Source: Mycobacterium branderi
GTDB lineage: Bacteria; Actinomycetota; Actinomycetes; Mycobacteriales; Mycobacteriaceae
DNA length: 64,000 nucleotides
NCBI RefSeq assembly: GCF_010728725.1
Contig: NZ_AP022606.1
Location: 1,550,001 to 1,614,000 of the forward strand
Direction: 5' to 3'
The position numbers and the translations under genes are program-made. Shown here one piece after another: positions 6,806 through 61,544 of this stretch. The notes beneath the pieces were generated by a model. It was given only the letters and a program-made list of their open reading frames with translations, did not search any database and had not been told where the DNA came from. The first letter of the stretch is position 1, and the number at the start of each line of letters is the position of its first letter.

Positions 6806-6837
6806 CTGTCCACACCTGTGGATAACCATGTGGACAG
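6806..6837. promoter_or_regulatory. Three DnaA boxes in the dnaA leader
   Basis: In 32 bases lie CTGTCCACA (6806-6814, plus), TTATCCACA as its complement TGTGGATAA (6817-6825, perfect) and CTGTCCACA as its complement TGTGGACAG (6829-6837). They end 54 bases before the start codon and fit autoregulation of dnaA by DnaA. Confidence 0.85.
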
Positions 6838-8394: not shown

Positions 8395-8861
8395 TCTGCC
8401 CAAAAATTTTTGCCGTGGCCAGCTGTGCATACAGCTGTGAGCAACTGGCTCACACCTTCACCTCCACCCCACAGCCTCGTGCACACAAGCGCCCCATCCC
8501 CATACCGCGCACACAAACCCCACAGGCGCACAGAACTTCATCCACACCCCAATTCCGGTCCTTAGCTGCAGCGACGGTGCATTGTCCCCAGCATGCACAG
8601 CACTTATTACTGTTACGAGTATCTCTTCGTAGTTTCTTCTTCGAAAACACCGTTGGGGACACGCGGTTCCACATCCGCCGAACGCCTCGGCGGGCGCGGC
8701 TTGTCACTGCGATCGATTAGCTTTCAAGATGACGACGGAAGCTCTACGGTTGTTGTTCGACTGCCGTTACGGCCGTCGTGGCGGATTACAGGCACAGGCG
8801 TTCGTCAGCGGGGTTAGCCGCTGCAGATGAACCTTGCTGTTCGGGGTGATGAAGGGACGCT
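8395..8861. other. oriC (dnaA-dnaN spacer)
   Basis: Mycobacterial oriC lies between dnaA and dnaN, and this 467-base spacer has the expected features. It begins with a 12-bp palindrome CAAAAATTTTTG (8401-8412) and two adjacent inverted repeats (8420-8437 and 8436-8454). DnaA-box-like 9-mers include TCATCCACA (8538-8546), TTGTCCCCA (8582-8590), TCGTGCACA (8477-8485) and a reverse GTGTCCCCA (8654-8662); none is a perfect TTATCCACA. A pyrimidine- and AT-rich stretch at about 8600-8650 is the likely unwinding element. The rest, up to GAAGGGA before dnaN, is the dnaN promoter region. Confidence 0.85.
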
Positions 8862-18926: not shown

Positions 18927-19348
18927 ACCGGCGGCGCGTACCCGGCCTCGGTGAGCGCGTCGAGCACCTCCAACGGATTGGTGCCGAGGTCCCAGCGCGA
19001 GAAAATCAGCAGCCGGTCGTCGACGGTCTCGATCTCCAGCAGCCGGGTCTTGCGTCCGATGCGCCGGAACTCGGTGATCCGGAGGATCTTGATGTCGGGG
19101 CGCCGCAAAAGCTGCGTTCGCAACCACCCGCGAACTAACAGCCCCTCGGGGGTGATTGCCAGCTTCGGCCGCGCGCGCCACGAAACGCTTGCAAACAAGA
19201 TCAACCCCGCCGCGGCAATACCTGTGAGGATCCGGCCCGGCGGGTCTGTGACCAGAGTCACACACGCGATAGCCATCGCCACGCCGACGAAGCCACAACC
19301 TGCGATTCCGGGCGTGGACGGTGCCCATTCGGTTTGCTGCACAGGCAT
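18923..19348 (-). CDS. Membrane protein with PH-like domain (Rv0010c type)
   Basis: The 141-residue protein has two N-terminal membrane segments (about residues 14-32 and 42-60) and a C-terminal bacterial PH-like domain (about 65-135) with [21 protein letters not shown]. It matches M. tuberculosis Rv0010c; function unknown. I use ATG at 19348 ([10 protein letters not shown]); a GTG two codons later is also possible. A perfect DnaA box and an 18-bp palindrome lie within 80 bases upstream, which is unusual for a gene of this class. Confidence 0.82.
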
Positions 19349-19377
19349 GCTAGAGCGCCCTACCTTTGGCGATGCAG

Positions 19378-19386
19378 TTATCCACA
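19378..19386 (+). promoter_or_regulatory. Perfect DnaA box upstream of the PH-domain gene
   Basis: TTATCCACA, the consensus DnaA box, lies 30 bases upstream of the minus-strand start codon at 19348, where it could overlap the promoter. Confidence 0.6.
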
Positions 19387-19408
19387 AGCGCTATCAACAA
19401 TGGGGATG

Positions 19409-19426
19409 AATCACATGCGTGTGATT
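19409..19426. promoter_or_regulatory. 18-bp palindrome upstream of the PH-domain gene
   Basis: Arms AATCACA and TGTGATT are separated by TGCG. The half-sites resemble CRP half-sites but in the opposite order (TCACA-N4-TGTGA rather than TGTGA-N6-TCACA), so the binding protein is unknown. Confidence 0.45.
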
Positions 19427-19497
19427 GAGTAAACGGCGGGTTGCCAATACAGTAACGATCCCCACCCTAAATGAATTCATTACGGCACCGGCGACTG

Positions 19498-19779
19498 TTA
19501 CCGCCACCGCATGGTGAGCAACAAACCACTGATCATGAAAGCAAACGCCACGGCGTAGTTCCACGGTCCCAGTTCGGCCATCCAGTCCAGCACCGAGGGC
19601 GCGTTGGGGCCGGTGGCGGCCAGCTGGAACACCATCAGCCAGATCAGCCCGATCAGCATCAAGCCGACGAACAGTGCGACGAACCAGACGCTGGACGGTC
19701 CGGCCTTGACCTTGACCGGCGTCCGGCTGACCGGACTCGCGGTGAAGTCGTTTTTCTTGCGGACCTTGGACTTGGGCAT
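19498..19779 (-). CDS. crgA: Cell division protein CrgA
   Basis: CrgA is a small divisome membrane protein that in M. tuberculosis contacts FtsZ, FtsQ, FtsI and CwsA. The 93-residue product starts [12 protein letters not shown] and has two membrane helices (about residues 30-51 and 69-90), ending in MRWR. Length and sequence match the orthologue. The ATG at 19779 is used; ten more upstream residues in the frame are not conserved. It is divergent from the DUF881 gene. Confidence 0.95.
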
Positions 19780-58506: not shown

Positions 58507-58626
58507 ATGGCCCTCCGCGATACCTCACTGCACAACACCCCGGTGGGTCGGTGAGCACAGCATGCGCCAGGTAGGGAATACCCGCAAGCGGACACGGCCA
58601 ACCGCGGCTGAAGGGCAGAAAGGCGA

Positions 58627-58657
58627 CGGGGCGCCGCGCGAACCGCGCGACGCCCCG
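58627..58657 (-). terminator. sodA terminator
   Basis: CGGGGCG-C-CGCGCG and CGCGCG-A-CGCCCCG form a 13-bp stem with one mismatch and loop AAC, 21 bases after the sodA stop. On the minus strand it is followed by a short pyrimidine stretch CTTTCT. Confidence 0.75.
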
Positions 58658-58677
58658 ATTGCCGAAGCCCGCTAAAG

Positions 58678-59301
58678 TCAGCCGGCGATGAGCCCCTTGG
58701 TCTTCGAGGTCGCGGCGGCGTAACGCGACTGCACGTCGGCCCAGTTGACGACGTTCCAGAACGCCTTGGCGAAGTCGGCTTTGACGTTTTTGTACTGCAG
58801 GTAGAAGGCGTGCTCCCACATGTCGAGCACCAGCAACGGGACGATGCCGAGCGGGAAGTTCGTCTGGTGGTCGTACACCTGGAACACCAGCAACTTCTCG
58901 CCGAGGCTGTCCCAGCCGAGTGCCGCCCACCCCGACCCCTGCACGGTGGTGGCCGCCGCCGTGAACTGGGCGCGGAACTTGTCGAACGACCCGAACGCGT
59001 CGTCGATGGCGGCGGCGAGCTCGCCGGTCGGCTTGTCGCCACCGTCGGGCGACAGGTTCTTCCACCACAGGCTGTGGTTGACGTGGCCCGCCAGGTTGAA
59101 CGCCAAGTTCTTTTCGTTCAGCAGGATCGTCGACTGGTCATCGTTGGCGCGCGCCTCCTCGAGCTTGGCGAGCGCGTCGTTGGCACCCTTGACGTAGGTC
59201 GCATGGTGTTTGCTGTGGTGAAGCTCGTTGATCTGACCCGAGATGTGCGGTTCCAGCGCGCCGTAGTCCCAGTCCAAATCGGGCAACGTGTATACAGCCA
59301 C
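58678..59301 (-). CDS. sodA: Superoxide dismutase (Fe/Mn family) SodA
   Basis: SodA removes superoxide; the M. tuberculosis enzyme uses iron and is secreted through SecA2 without a classical signal peptide. The 207-residue protein has metal ligands His28 (ELHHSKHH region), His76 (HVNHSLWW), and the Asp and His of DMWEHAFYL. The active-site [11 protein letters not shown] has His at the position equivalent to 145, as in the iron enzyme of M. tuberculosis. The start is a GTG at 59301. A terminator follows the gene. Confidence 0.97.
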
Positions 59302-59447: not shown

Positions 59448-59603
59448 TCAGACCAGCACGATGACGGCGAGGACCGCCAGCAAAATCAGGGCGATCAATC
59501 CGGCGCGCACACCGGCGAGCAGGTAGGAGCGGTTACAGGCAGGGGAACTGCCGTACCAATGCGAGGACGACGTCGACTGCGGCCCGACTGGTTGTGTCGT
59601 CAT
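59448..59603 (-). CDS. 51-aa small membrane protein
   Basis: From ATG at 59603 a 51-residue product begins MTTQPVGPQSTSSSHWYGS and ends with one hydrophobic helix (about residues 29-50). I do not recognise it. The frame continues upstream but those residues are not convincing. It stands alone between sodA and the DnaA-box cluster, pointing toward sodA. Confidence 0.5.
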   Translation of the reverse strand: MTTQPVGPQSTSSSHWYGSSPACNRSYLLAGVRAGLIALILLAVLAVIVLV

Positions 59604-60056
59604 CGAAGGACCCTGACCTGCACGTCCAACTCTCCCCCAGTGAGATGAGTCACAAATAACTTCGGTGGTCGCGATCATAACGTCTTATGAACCGCCGGAA
59701 AAATTGAACCCGCGCCAGCCCGCTGACCAGCGATTGCCGGGGTCGCTGGCGGCAATCTGTGCGGGCGCTGCGCGCGCCGTCGAGAATCGGGTGGATGGTT
59801 CGCCGCCAGCGTCTGGCGGTCGCGGGATGCTTAGCGCGGCGATGAATTTCGCTCGCGGCGTTCTCGGCCTGTCGATTGGCGGGCGGGTTATCGCGCCGTT
59901 ATCCACAGCCGCCGTCCCGCCCGGGGTATTGACGCGCCGTCAATGGCGATCCGCTGCACGCCGATGCTGTGCATAAACCTGTGGAAACTGTGGATAGCCG
60001 TTGGTAGCTGGCGGCGGCTTCTGCGCTGCCGGGGGGCGCGTGCCAAGATCGACCTC
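59604..60056. other. Gene-free region with DnaA-box cluster
   Basis: This 453-base spacer lies between the small membrane protein gene and the rhodanese gene. The last third holds four DnaA-box-like 9-mers (next entry). The rest has no recognisable gene. Weak AT-rich patches at 59660-59700 could be promoters for the small gene. Confidence 0.65.
59899..59997. promoter_or_regulatory. DnaA-box cluster
   Basis: In 99 bases lie TTATCCACA (59899-59907, perfect, plus), TGTGCATAA (59969-59977, reverse, one mismatch), TGTGGAAAC (59980-59988, reverse, two mismatches) and TGTGGATAG (59989-59997, reverse, one mismatch). The three reverse sites are almost contiguous. The cluster lies about 51 kb from oriC. 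Confidence 0.7.
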
Positions 60057-60401
60057 ATGCCCGGTGAACCGGTGGTTGCTCAAACGGACGTCGCCGCCCT
60101 GCCGGCCGAATTCGGCTCGGCGGCGGTGTTGCTGGACGTGCGCGAGAACGACGAGTGGAAATGCGGCCACGCCCCCGGCGCGCAACACATCCCGATGGCC
60201 GAAGTCCCGGCACGGCTTGGCGAGATCGACCGCCAAGCCGAGCTGTACGTCATTTGCCATGCGGGTGGGCGGTCCCTGCGGGTAGCGCAATATCTGCAGC
60301 AAAACGGTTACCGGGCAATCAACGTCAGCGGCGGGATGCTGGCATGGGCGGGCGCCGGGCGTTCGGTGATCACCGACGACGGCGGCCCCGGCAACGTCTG
60401 A
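60057..60401 (+). CDS. Single-domain rhodanese
   Basis: The 114-residue protein has a single rhodanese domain with the catalytic cysteine loop CHAGGRSLRVA and the preceding VLLDVRENDEWKCGHAPGA. Rhodaneses move sulfane sulfur; the acceptor is unknown. The ATG at 60057 begins MPGEPVVAQTD. The DnaA-box cluster ends 60 bases upstream, within the likely promoter. I do not recall an orthologue at this position in M. tuberculosis. Confidence 0.87.
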   Translation: MPGEPVVAQTDVAALPAEFGSAAVLLDVRENDEWKCGHAPGAQHIPMAEVPARLGEIDRQAELYVICHAGGRSLRVAQYLQQNGYRAINVSGGMLAWAGAGRSVITDDGGPGNV

Positions 60402-60518: not shown

Positions 60519-61544
60519 ATGATTCAAGCGTGCTCACAGTGCGGCACACGCTGGAACGTGCGTGATCGCCAGCGGGTGTGGTGTCCGCGCTGCCGCGGGA
60601 CGCTGCTGCCGCCGTCCACCGAGGGACAGGCGGTCGACCCGCGGTGGAGTGCTCGCAGCGCCGCACCCACCACCGGCCCACGGATGCCGCCGCGGCTGCC
60701 GCCGGGTTACCGATGGATCGCCGTGCGGCCCGGCGCACCACCGCCGCCGCGGCGCCGGCGCCGGCCCCTGGGACCCACCCCGCGTTACGCGGTCACCCCG
60801 CGATGGGGACTGGTGGATCGCGTCGAGCCGGGCGCAGCGGCGCCGACCGCGGCCGCGCGGCCGGGCCCGTCGGCGGCGCGAGTGCGCACCACGTTGTTCG
60901 CGAGCGTCGTGGTGTTCGGCATTGCGGCGCTGGTGCATTTCGTGCGCTATCTGCTGCTGATCATCAACCGCGGCACCCTGCTCAACCCGTGGGTGGCGGG
61001 CGCCGCGCTCTGGCTTGGCGTGTTGGCCAGTGCCGCCGCCATCGCGATGGTGATCACCTGTGCTGTGGTGCTGATCCGATGGCTGATCGCCCGCCGCGCC
61101 GCCGCGTTCGCGCAGTACGGCCTGCCCGAGCCGCGTTCGGCCCGTGCGCTGTGGGCCGGGTGCTTCATACCCGTGGCGAACCTGCTGTGGGCGCCGGTGT
61201 ACGTCATCGAGCTGGCCGCCACCGAAGGCGTCCTGGCCCGGCTGCGCAAACCCATCCTGCTGTGGTGGATCGTCTGGGCCACCAGCACGGCGGTTTCGCT
61301 CTTCGCTATCGCGACCAGCCGCGCGCACGATGCCCAAGGCATTGCCGACAACACCGTGACCACGACGTTTGCCTACCTGGTGGCGGCGGCCGCGGTGGCC
61401 GCCGCCGGGCGGGTGTTCGAGGGCTTCGAGCGCAAACCGGTCGAACGGCCCGCGCATCGCTGGGTGGTGGTCGCCGACGATCGCGGCGACGCGCCGGAAT
61501 CCGCTCCGGCTGTTGAGTCGGACGGCGAGGAACCGGCAGCATAG
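60519..61544 (+). CDS. DUF4328 membrane protein with zinc ribbon (Rv3843c type)
   Basis: The 341-residue protein starts with a zinc-ribbon CSQCGTRW...CPRC (residues 4-26), then a Pro/Arg-rich linker, and a DUF4328-like membrane part with about six helices (about residues 120-320). Function unknown. The ATG at 60519 follows GGGGGAG. glpQ1 begins four bases after its stop. It is probably the Rv3843c orthologue. Confidence 0.82.
   Translation: MIQACSQCGTRWNVRDRQRVWCPRCRGTLLPPSTEGQAVDPRWSARSAAPTTGPRMPPRLPPGYRWIAVRPGAPPPPRRRRRPLGPTPRYAVTPRWGLVDRVEPGAAAPTAAARPGPSAARVRTTLFASVVVFGIAALVHFVRYLLLIINRGTLLNPWVAGAALWLGVLASAAAIAMVITCAVVLIRWLIARRAAAFAQYGLPEPRSARALWAGCFIPVANLLWAPVYVIELAATEGVLARLRKPILLWWIVWATSTAVSLFAIATSRAHDAQGIADNTVTTTFAYLVAAAAVAAAGRVFEGFERKPVERPAHRWVVVADDRGDAPESAPAVESDGEEPAA

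What the first reader, a model, noticed from the sequence alone, without database searches (positions are those of the whole stretch)
59899..59997. DnaA-box cluster about 51 kb from oriC, between sodA and a rhodanese gene
Seen: one perfect TTATCCACA and three reverse-strand near-matches within 99 bases of non-coding DNA, three of them nearly contiguous. Taking about 66% GC as an assumption, one would expect roughly 0.1 perfect boxes by chance on both strands of the window, so a clustered group is notable. Known: clusters such as datA and DARS away from oriC titrate or recharge DnaA in E. coli, and DnaA-box clusters do this in other bacteria. Inference: a DnaA titration or regulatory site, or DnaA control of the rhodanese gene.
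Basis: partly seen in the sequence, partly recalled or inferred. Interest (0 to 1): 0.72.

Follow-up and report, generated by a model that had tools for sequence, protein, structure and literature searches.

The report
Conserved DnaA-binding element near replication origin
A short stretch of non-coding DNA near the replication origin of mycobacteria carries a tightly conserved, precisely spaced set of binding sites for DnaA, the protein that starts chromosome copying, and probably helps control that protein, though what it does has not been tested.

Summary
One perfect and three near DnaA boxes lie at 59899-59997, the strongest cluster in the window (score 8; best of 60 shuffles 4), 51 kb from oriC. 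It is a real, selected element: the triple box is found in 115 of 118 genus genomes (two copies in one draft, one in the others), the reversed control in none, inside variable flanks. It recurs in other genera of the family beside the same genes. Published work already shows DnaA binding at the matching region of M. tuberculosis (Rv3843c-RVnc0040) and its M. smegmatis homologue, without a function. New here: the triple, an opposing box about 68 bp away and two non-DnaA motifs keep helical phase; where a spacing differs it mostly differs by one turn, while distance to the DUF4328 gene is unphased. Rhodanese control is poorly supported: another gene follows in most genus loci. Best reading: a phased DnaA complex that controls DnaA activity or availability, working like datA/DARS; membership untested.

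The parts
59831..59855 (+). left conserved block: TTAGC (59831-59835) and ATTTCGCTCG (59846-59855); not a DnaA box; binder unknown
   Evidence: ATTTCGCTCG within 2 mismatches in 107 of 115 genus loci (48+41+18); distance to the opposing box 43-44 in 11, 51-57 in 88, 66 in 2 of the 101 loci measured
59870..59878 (-). weak box-like site; TGTCGATTG here, genus consensus about TGTTGATNG
   Evidence: moderately conserved in the MAFFT alignment of 105 loci
59899..59907 (+). opposing DnaA box TTATCCACA
   Evidence: within 1 mismatch within 140 bp upstream of the triple in 107 of 115 genus loci; reversed-letter control never under 2 mismatches
59908..59966 (.). spacer, variable in sequence, length held near values about 10 bp apart
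   Evidence: box start to core start 66-70 in 99 of 115, 58 in 11, 78 in 1, 45 in 1, 96 (weak matches) in 3
59968..59976 (-). DnaA box c (TGTGCATAA), first of the triple
59980..59988 (-). DnaA box d (TGTGGAAAC), second of the triple
59989..59997 (-). DnaA box e (TGTGGATAG), third of the triple
   Evidence: over the triple 17 of 31 core columns are identical in 105 of 105 loci
60005..60010 (+). right conserved motif TAGCTG (T[AT]GC[TC][GA]); binder unknown
   Evidence: 6-9 bp after the triple in 84 of 115 loci, 16-20 bp in 22, none at 10-15, absent in 9; control windows 11 of 460
60057..60401 (+). rhodanese-domain gene, the next gene here; next gene in 48 of 115 genus loci
60519..61544 (+). DUF4328 membrane protein gene, probable orthologue of Rv3843c
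   Evidence: Rv number by order of genes
58678..59301 (-). sodA
8395..8861 (.). dnaA-dnaN spacer (oriC), for reference
19378..19409 (.). second non-oriC DnaA-box cluster, probably the Rv0010c-Rv0011c site (comparator)
   Evidence: score 5; window 19300-19520 matched in 109 of 118 genus genomes
6806..6837 (.). DnaA-box cluster upstream of dnaA, probably the rpmH-dnaA site (comparator)
   Evidence: score 5

Best explanation
The feature is one of the few strong DnaA-binding loci outside oriC in mycobacteria and their family. Shown, here or in print: the boxes exist, are selected, normally occur once per genome at this locus, and DnaA binds the matching region of M. tuberculosis in vitro and its homologue in M. 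smegmatis in vivo. Shown here by comparison: the triple box, the opposing box about 68 bp upstream and two further motifs keep helical phase, so they most likely build one compact nucleoprotein complex. Inferred: three DnaA molecules assemble head-to-tail on the triple and, with the spacer bent (perhaps by a nucleoid protein or by the unknown factor at the flanking motifs), contact DnaA on the opposing box. The complex then changes the amount or nucleotide state of DnaA available to oriC soon after the locus is replicated. So it works like E. coli datA or DARS more than like a gene operator. I put about 0.9 on a selected DnaA complex and about 0.5 on control of DnaA rather than of a neighbouring gene.
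For: Binding: IDAP-seq at 150 nM M. tuberculosis DnaA enriched five regions (oriC, Rv0010c-Rv0011c, Rv0057, Rv3843c-RVnc0040, rpmH-dnaA), and M. smegmatis ChIP-seq found homologues of the same five (PMC7738170 passages). The three best box clusters in the window probably match three of these. Conservation: 17 of 31 core columns identical in 105 of 105 loci, flanks near background; core pattern within 3 mismatches in 115 of 118 genomes, reversed pattern in 0. Phase: opposing box 66-70 bp away in 99 of 115, 58 in 11, 78 in 1, other in 4; left motif to box 51-57 in 88, 43-44 in 11, 66 in 2 of 101; triple to right motif 6-9 in 84 and 16-20 in 22 of 106. On a DUF4328 tree the one-turn classes (44, 58, 18) need at least 4, 2 and 6 changes, plus one genome at 78. 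Triple to DUF4328 start is 52-355 bp in 64 loci with no 10.5-bp phase (resultant 0.08). Element without gene: M. bohemicum keeps it although in the 6 kb read only the first 13 DUF4328 residues match and glpQ is not found (L051). Gene without element: 3 g4 genomes tested have DUF4328 and glpQ and no box cluster, and 0 of 23 g4 genomes match the pattern (at least 8 of the 23 are under 90% complete). In g9 the element is flipped relative to the genes (11 of 11 loci, which include the 5 genomes read longer). Position: 51-460 kb from dnaN in 52 genus genomes.
Against: No call measures function. The element stays beside DUF4328-glpQ in 37 of the 40 family loci I chose to fetch, as an operator would; synteny alone also explains the near-oriC position and constant orientation. 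Distance to the rhodanese start (37-104 bp, 48 loci) is weakly phased (resultant 0.30). The motif classes and the right-motif expression were chosen after seeing the data; the tree is of one gene; the event figure (3e-9) uses an arbitrary null; the resultants for the internal distances are high over periods of 10-13 and do not by themselves fix the period. Spacing inside the triple is fixed by the search pattern, so its constancy is not an independent result. Two 3.3-Mb genomes (G075, G115) lack the core pattern, and in G115 it looks decayed, so it is dispensable there. L154, L156 and L157 have no good opposing box near 68 bp, and L151 has it at 45. In g9 the boxes may have been re-formed rather than flipped. 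Loss of DUF4328 in M. bohemicum may be recent, and the gene was not sought elsewhere in that genome.
Confidence: 0.52

Rival explanations
1. Transcriptional operator: DnaA bound here activates or represses the adjacent rhodanese/DUF4328(-glpQ) genes, or the divergent small ORF/sRNA, coupling a membrane or phosphodiester function to replication.
For: The element lies upstream of this gene pair in nearly all loci read. DnaA is a known transcription factor (PMC8203912, abstract start and passages). In M. tuberculosis Rv3843c is listed among mass-spectrometry partners of the cell-division protein Rv0954 (PMC8093794, one passage), and dnaA, Rv0010c and Rv3843c all appear in one table of isoniazid-response candidates (PMC8613195, passages). 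Distance to the rhodanese start is weakly phased (0.30).
Against: Element-to-DUF4328-start distance runs 52-355 bp without phase, while the DUF4328 start has a consensus -10-like TAGGCT at -12 to -7 (T and A of it in 52 of 64 loci each). The next gene differs among species. The element is inverted relative to the genes in g9 and survives local gene loss in M. bohemicum; the genes persist without it in g4.
Confidence: 0.3
2. Plain titration site: boxes near oriC merely soak up DnaA and are doubled soon after initiation.
For: Near-oriC position and strong binding in print. E. coli has a conserved high-density box region near oriC read as titration (PMC12371093, passages).
Against: Titration needs no helical phase, fixed opposing box or non-DnaA motifs. 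Only about four good boxes, normally once per genome.
Confidence: 0.12
3. A cryptic or former replication origin, or a relocated oriC array.
For: Head-to-tail boxes resemble oriC arrays; two g3 genomes have a similar triple in oriC itself (G302, G311).
Against: Cumulative GC skew, though shallow, is lowest over about 4-24 kb, around dnaA, and shows no turn at 59.9 kb. The dnaA-dnaN spacer is in place. No AT-rich stretch adjoins the triple (by eye).
Confidence: 0.03
4. Chance cluster or remnant without function.
For: Decayed in one small genome (G115) and not found in another (G075).
Against: Conservation, phase and published binding.
Confidence: 0.02

Closest known systems
Rv3843c-RVnc0040 DnaA-binding region of M. 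tuberculosis and its M. smegmatis homologue (Hicks et al. 2020, PMC7738170)
   Same: Very probably the same locus: next to Rv3843c, whose neighbour number Rv3842c is glpQ1; DnaA-bound in vitro and, in M. smegmatis, in vivo.
   Different: In the passages and Discussion read no boxes, architecture, conservation or function are given for this region, and it is said to have no obvious correspondence in other bacterial species. The M. tuberculosis sequence itself was not read here.
datA of E. coli
   Same: Intergenic, near oriC, several DnaA boxes with spacing that matters, and loop formation postulated between boxes (review PMC10380432, passages).
   Different: datA needs an IHF site and promotes DnaA-ATP hydrolysis; no such site or activity is shown here, and sequence homology is not claimed.
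DARS1/DARS2 of E. coli
   Same: A small set of DnaA boxes in a specific arrangement that includes boxes of opposite orientation.
   Different: The head-to-head pair that marks the DARS core is replaced here by a head-to-tail triple and an opposing box some 50-70 bp away; nucleotide exchange untested.
Rv0010c-Rv0011c DnaA site
   Same: Another non-oriC site; its probable counterpart in the window (19378) is conserved in 109 of 118 genus genomes.
   Different: Different box arrangement; still matched in the 3.3-Mb genomes G075 and G115, where the present element is not found or decayed.
Near-oriC box-rich region of E. coli read as titration (PMC12371093)
   Same: DnaA boxes concentrated near the origin (passages).
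   Different: That is a regional density of many motifs, not one phased element.

Membership tests
Non-oriC DnaA-binding locus | multiple DnaA boxes more than chance | tested here: met
   cluster score 8, shuffles at most 4 in 60
Non-oriC DnaA-binding locus | boxes conserved while flanks vary | tested here: met
Non-oriC DnaA-binding locus | DnaA binds it | not testable with these tools
   published for the matching region in two species; not measured for this genome
datA | DnaA boxes with constrained spacing on both sides of a bendable spacer | tested here: met
   (analogy of layout only; bending not tested)
datA | IHF binding site in the spacer | not tested
   no search for a mycobacterial IHF-type site was run; spacer sequence is variable
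datA | promotes hydrolysis of DnaA-bound ATP | not testable with these tools
   needs biochemistry
DARS | head-to-head boxes I and II plus box III as a compact core | tested here: not met
   in the window the only opposing box is about 60 bp from the triple, which is head-to-tail; that the DARS core is compact is recalled, its orientation is
DARS | releases ADP from DnaA | not testable with these tools
   needs biochemistry
oriC | lies at the GC-skew turn and beside dnaA/dnaN | tested here: not met
DnaA-regulated promoter | boxes at fixed distance or phase from the promoter they control | tested here: inconclusive
   52-355 bp and unphased to the DUF4328 start (64 loci), 37-104 bp and weakly phased to the rhodanese start (48 loci); transcription not measured

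The most novel reading that the evidence does not exclude
This is the first recognised DnaA-switching locus of Actinobacteria: a helically phased DnaA machine, with at least one further unknown protein on the ATTTCGCTCG and T[AT]GCTG motifs, that catalyses a change of DnaA nucleotide state or sequesters an ordered DnaA oligomer, and so times replication in mycobacteria and relatives.
Probability: 0.3. Interest if true: 0.85.

Novelty: new variant of a known kind. Interest (0 to 1): 0.62.

Why it matters
How mycobacteria hold DnaA in check is open: the 2020 paper raises the possibility that a DnaA site outside oriC (Rv0010c-Rv0011c) regulates DnaA, but leaves the consequences undetermined (PMC7738170, Discussion read). 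A normally single-copy element with defined boxes, phase and flanking motifs turns that question into a direct test and points to a partner protein to look for.

Tried and rejected
Chance cluster: rejected. RNA element: three Rfam hits at E up to 10, all below their gathering scores, at 58611-58674, 58980-59052 and 60249-60314, none on the cluster. Coding: a mechanical ORF 59665-59976 covers part of the element, but it has no Pfam match at E 0.001, and ATTTCGCTCG is conserved at all positions alike (by eye). Second origin: rejected on GC skew and position. Rhodanese control: poorly supported, with a weak phase signal left standing. ATTTCGCTCG shared with other DnaA sites in the window: 4 matches within 1 mismatch against 4.7 expected, the only perfect one being that of the element; no support.

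Spread beyond the family: 12 of 170 genomes outside the family match within 2 mismatches. DUF4328 was sought in 7 of these 12 and found in 5: 76-255 kb from the match in four and on another contig in the fifth. So the element at this locus is not shown outside the family. Three family hits (G161, G302, G311) are oriC arrays and come off the 189 of 301; context was read for 40 family loci of my choice, some also in shorter stretches, not for the rest.

M. tuberculosis was not among the 118 named stretches (titles), so Rv3843c was matched to DUF4328 by gene order: glpQ1 = Rv3842c, sRNA MTS2975 between Rv3843c and Rv3844, Rv3843c a transmembrane protein. sodA = Rv3846 is from recall; one search gave a listing only. 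Searches for an earlier description of this architecture: (open-licence papers, capped listings seen). I saw none in the listings, nor in the passages of PMC7738170 and PMC13270200.

Rows dropped: from the 105 and the 115, second stretches of the same genome (L014, L022, L036, L108) and L028 (G115), G014 (dnaN split), G315 (two contigs) and, for the distances, G311 (oriC). My small-ORF query (59453-59605) was out of frame, so its rows are ignored. Script one search did nothing.

Full report
WHAT IS THERE. The window holds, at 59899-59997, one perfect TTATCCACA on the plus strand and three boxes on the minus strand with 1, 2 and 1 mismatches. Scored within 99 bp it is the strongest DnaA-box cluster of the window (8); the next two distinct clusters, at 19378 and 6806, score 5 each; the best of 60 dinucleotide shuffles reached 4. 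dnaA, dnaN, recF and gyrB are identified between 6.9 and 14 kb, so the cluster is 51 kb from oriC. Neighbours are sodA (-) and a rhodanese gene, then a DUF4328 gene (+).

IT IS CONSERVED. A blastn of 59600-60120 against 118 genomes of the genus hit 106, most of the listed matches covering the triple. In 105 loci laid on the triple without gaps, 17 of 31 columns are identical in all 105 and the flanks fall to near background, except an opposing box about 68 bp upstream. The pattern TGTGGATRANNCTGTGGAAANTGTGGATA within 3 mismatches is in 115 of 118 genomes: 114 have one copy and one (G014) has two; the reversed pattern gives none. Missing are G052 (87% complete) and two 3.3-Mb genomes, G075 and G115; in G115 the site looks decayed. 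In the family 189 of 301 genomes and 22 of 31 genera match, reversed pattern 0; 29 of the 301 belong to the window's own genus and all match. At least three of the other hits are oriC arrays. Of 40 family loci that I chose to fetch, 37 lie beside DUF4328 and glpQ, and the other three are those oriC arrays. The pattern fixes the spacing inside the triple, so that spacing is not an independent finding.

DnaA BINDS IT, BY PUBLISHED WORK. PMC7738170 (passages and Discussion read) mapped DnaA by IDAP-seq in M. tuberculosis to five regions, one of them Rv3843c-RVnc0040, and found homologues of the same five by ChIP-seq in M. smegmatis; in what I read the authors give that region no role. Gene order equates Rv3843c with the DUF4328 gene: glpQ1 is Rv3842c (PMC12722247 passages), sRNA MTS2975 lies between Rv3843c and Rv3844 (PMC3207917 passages), and Rv3843c is annotated as a transmembrane protein (PMC8093794, one passage). 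That sodA is Rv3846 is recalled. The three best clusters of the window thus probably match three of the five published regions; this equation is an inference.

THE PARTS ARE PHASED. In 115 genus loci the opposing box starts 66-70 bp before the triple in 99 (one of them a tie of weak matches), 58 in 11, 78 in 1, 45 in 1, and at 96 with weak matches in 3. The motif ATTTCGCTCG lies 51-57 bp before that box in 88, 43-44 in 11 and 66 in 2 of the 101 loci in which both were good enough to measure. A right motif T[AT]GC[TC][GA] follows the triple by 6-9 bp in 84, by 16-20 in 22, and by 10-15 in none; 9 lack it; 11 of 460 control windows hold it. Left motif, opposing box and right motif all accompany the triple in 92 of 115. 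On a DUF4328 tree of 111 rows, the one-turn classes need 5 (at least 4 forced), 2 and 8 (at least 6 forced) changes; a more careful tree of the same protein also gives 2 for the 58 class. By contrast the triple lies 52-355 bp from the DUF4328 start in 64 loci, with no 10.5-bp phase (resultant 0.08); to the rhodanese start it is 37-104 bp in 48 loci with a weak phase (0.30). Repeated one-turn shifts with the parts otherwise intact are what a compact nucleoprotein complex predicts. The classes were defined after inspection, the resultants of the internal distances are high over periods of 10 to 13, and the figure of 3e-9 rests on an arbitrary null; I lean on the empty ranges between classes instead.

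GENE OPERATOR OR DnaA CONTROL? Against an operator: rhodanese is next in 48 of 115, DUF4328 in 64, neither in 3, of which two are cut contigs. M. bohemicum keeps the element though, in the 6 kb read, only 13 residues of DUF4328 match and no glpQ is found (L051; the name is from L187). Three g4 genomes tested keep DUF4328 and glpQ without a box cluster in the 3.8 kb read, two of them with a single near-match. In g9 the element is inverted relative to the genes in 11 of 11 loci. For an operator: it stays next to this gene pair almost everywhere read, the loss in M. bohemicum may be recent, and the rhodanese distance is weakly phased. Position: 51-460 kb from dnaN (median 159) in 52 genus genomes where both lie on one contig, co-oriented with the fork in 52 of 52. 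In 33 family genomes it is 61-430 kb away (median 153), 29 co-oriented and 4 not, the 4 being g9. Synteny can explain both facts, so they are weak evidence.

COMPARISON. E. coli datA and DARS use few boxes in set arrangements with spacing that matters (PMC10380432 and PMC4585315, passages). The present element resembles them in kind, lacks the DARS head-to-head core, and has no demonstrated IHF-type site or activity. It is not oriC. I therefore say it probably works like such loci and do not file it as a member.

VERDICT. A real, conserved, DnaA-bound element, already on record as a binding region, whose phased multi-motif architecture I did not find described in the searches named under Tried and rejected. 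The most useful open point is whether it changes DnaA itself or a neighbour.

Noticed in passing
window 19374-19430: A second DnaA-box cluster (TTATCCACA, CTATCAACA, TGGGGATGA, then a near-palindrome), probably the published Rv0010c-Rv0011c DnaA site; window 19300-19520 is matched in 109 of 118 genus genomes, G075 and G115 included.
   Followed up: partly
window 6806-6837: Three DnaA boxes upstream of dnaA, probably the published rpmH-dnaA site and in line with DnaA autoregulation.
   Followed up: no
window 59448-59603 (-) and 59617-59710: A 51-codon ORF for a small membrane peptide, divergent from the rhodanese gene, with a conserved promoter-like block and a CRP-like palindrome (59640-59654), read by eye; may correspond to sRNA MTS2975/RVnc0040.
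   Followed up: partly
L051 / L187 (M. bohemicum): Only the first 13 residues of DUF4328 match and glpQ is not found nearby, yet the DnaA element is intact.
   Followed up: partly
L162 (G115, 3.27 Mb genome): The triple is degenerate and the opposing box not recognisable while sodA, DUF4328 and glpQ match along their length without stops.
   Followed up: partly
L126-L136, L288-L290, L323, L324 (genus g9): The single box plus triple are inverted as a unit (or re-formed) relative to rhodanese-DUF4328, which stay in place.
   Followed up: partly
L204 (JAQUGH010000027.1): A MAG contig labelled Clostridia carries the exact mycobacterial core; probably mis-binned.
   Followed up: no
literature, PMC8613195: dnaA, Rv0010c and Rv3843c, the gene for DnaA and genes beside two of its sites, all appear in one candidate table for isoniazid response (passages); may be coincidence.
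   Followed up: no
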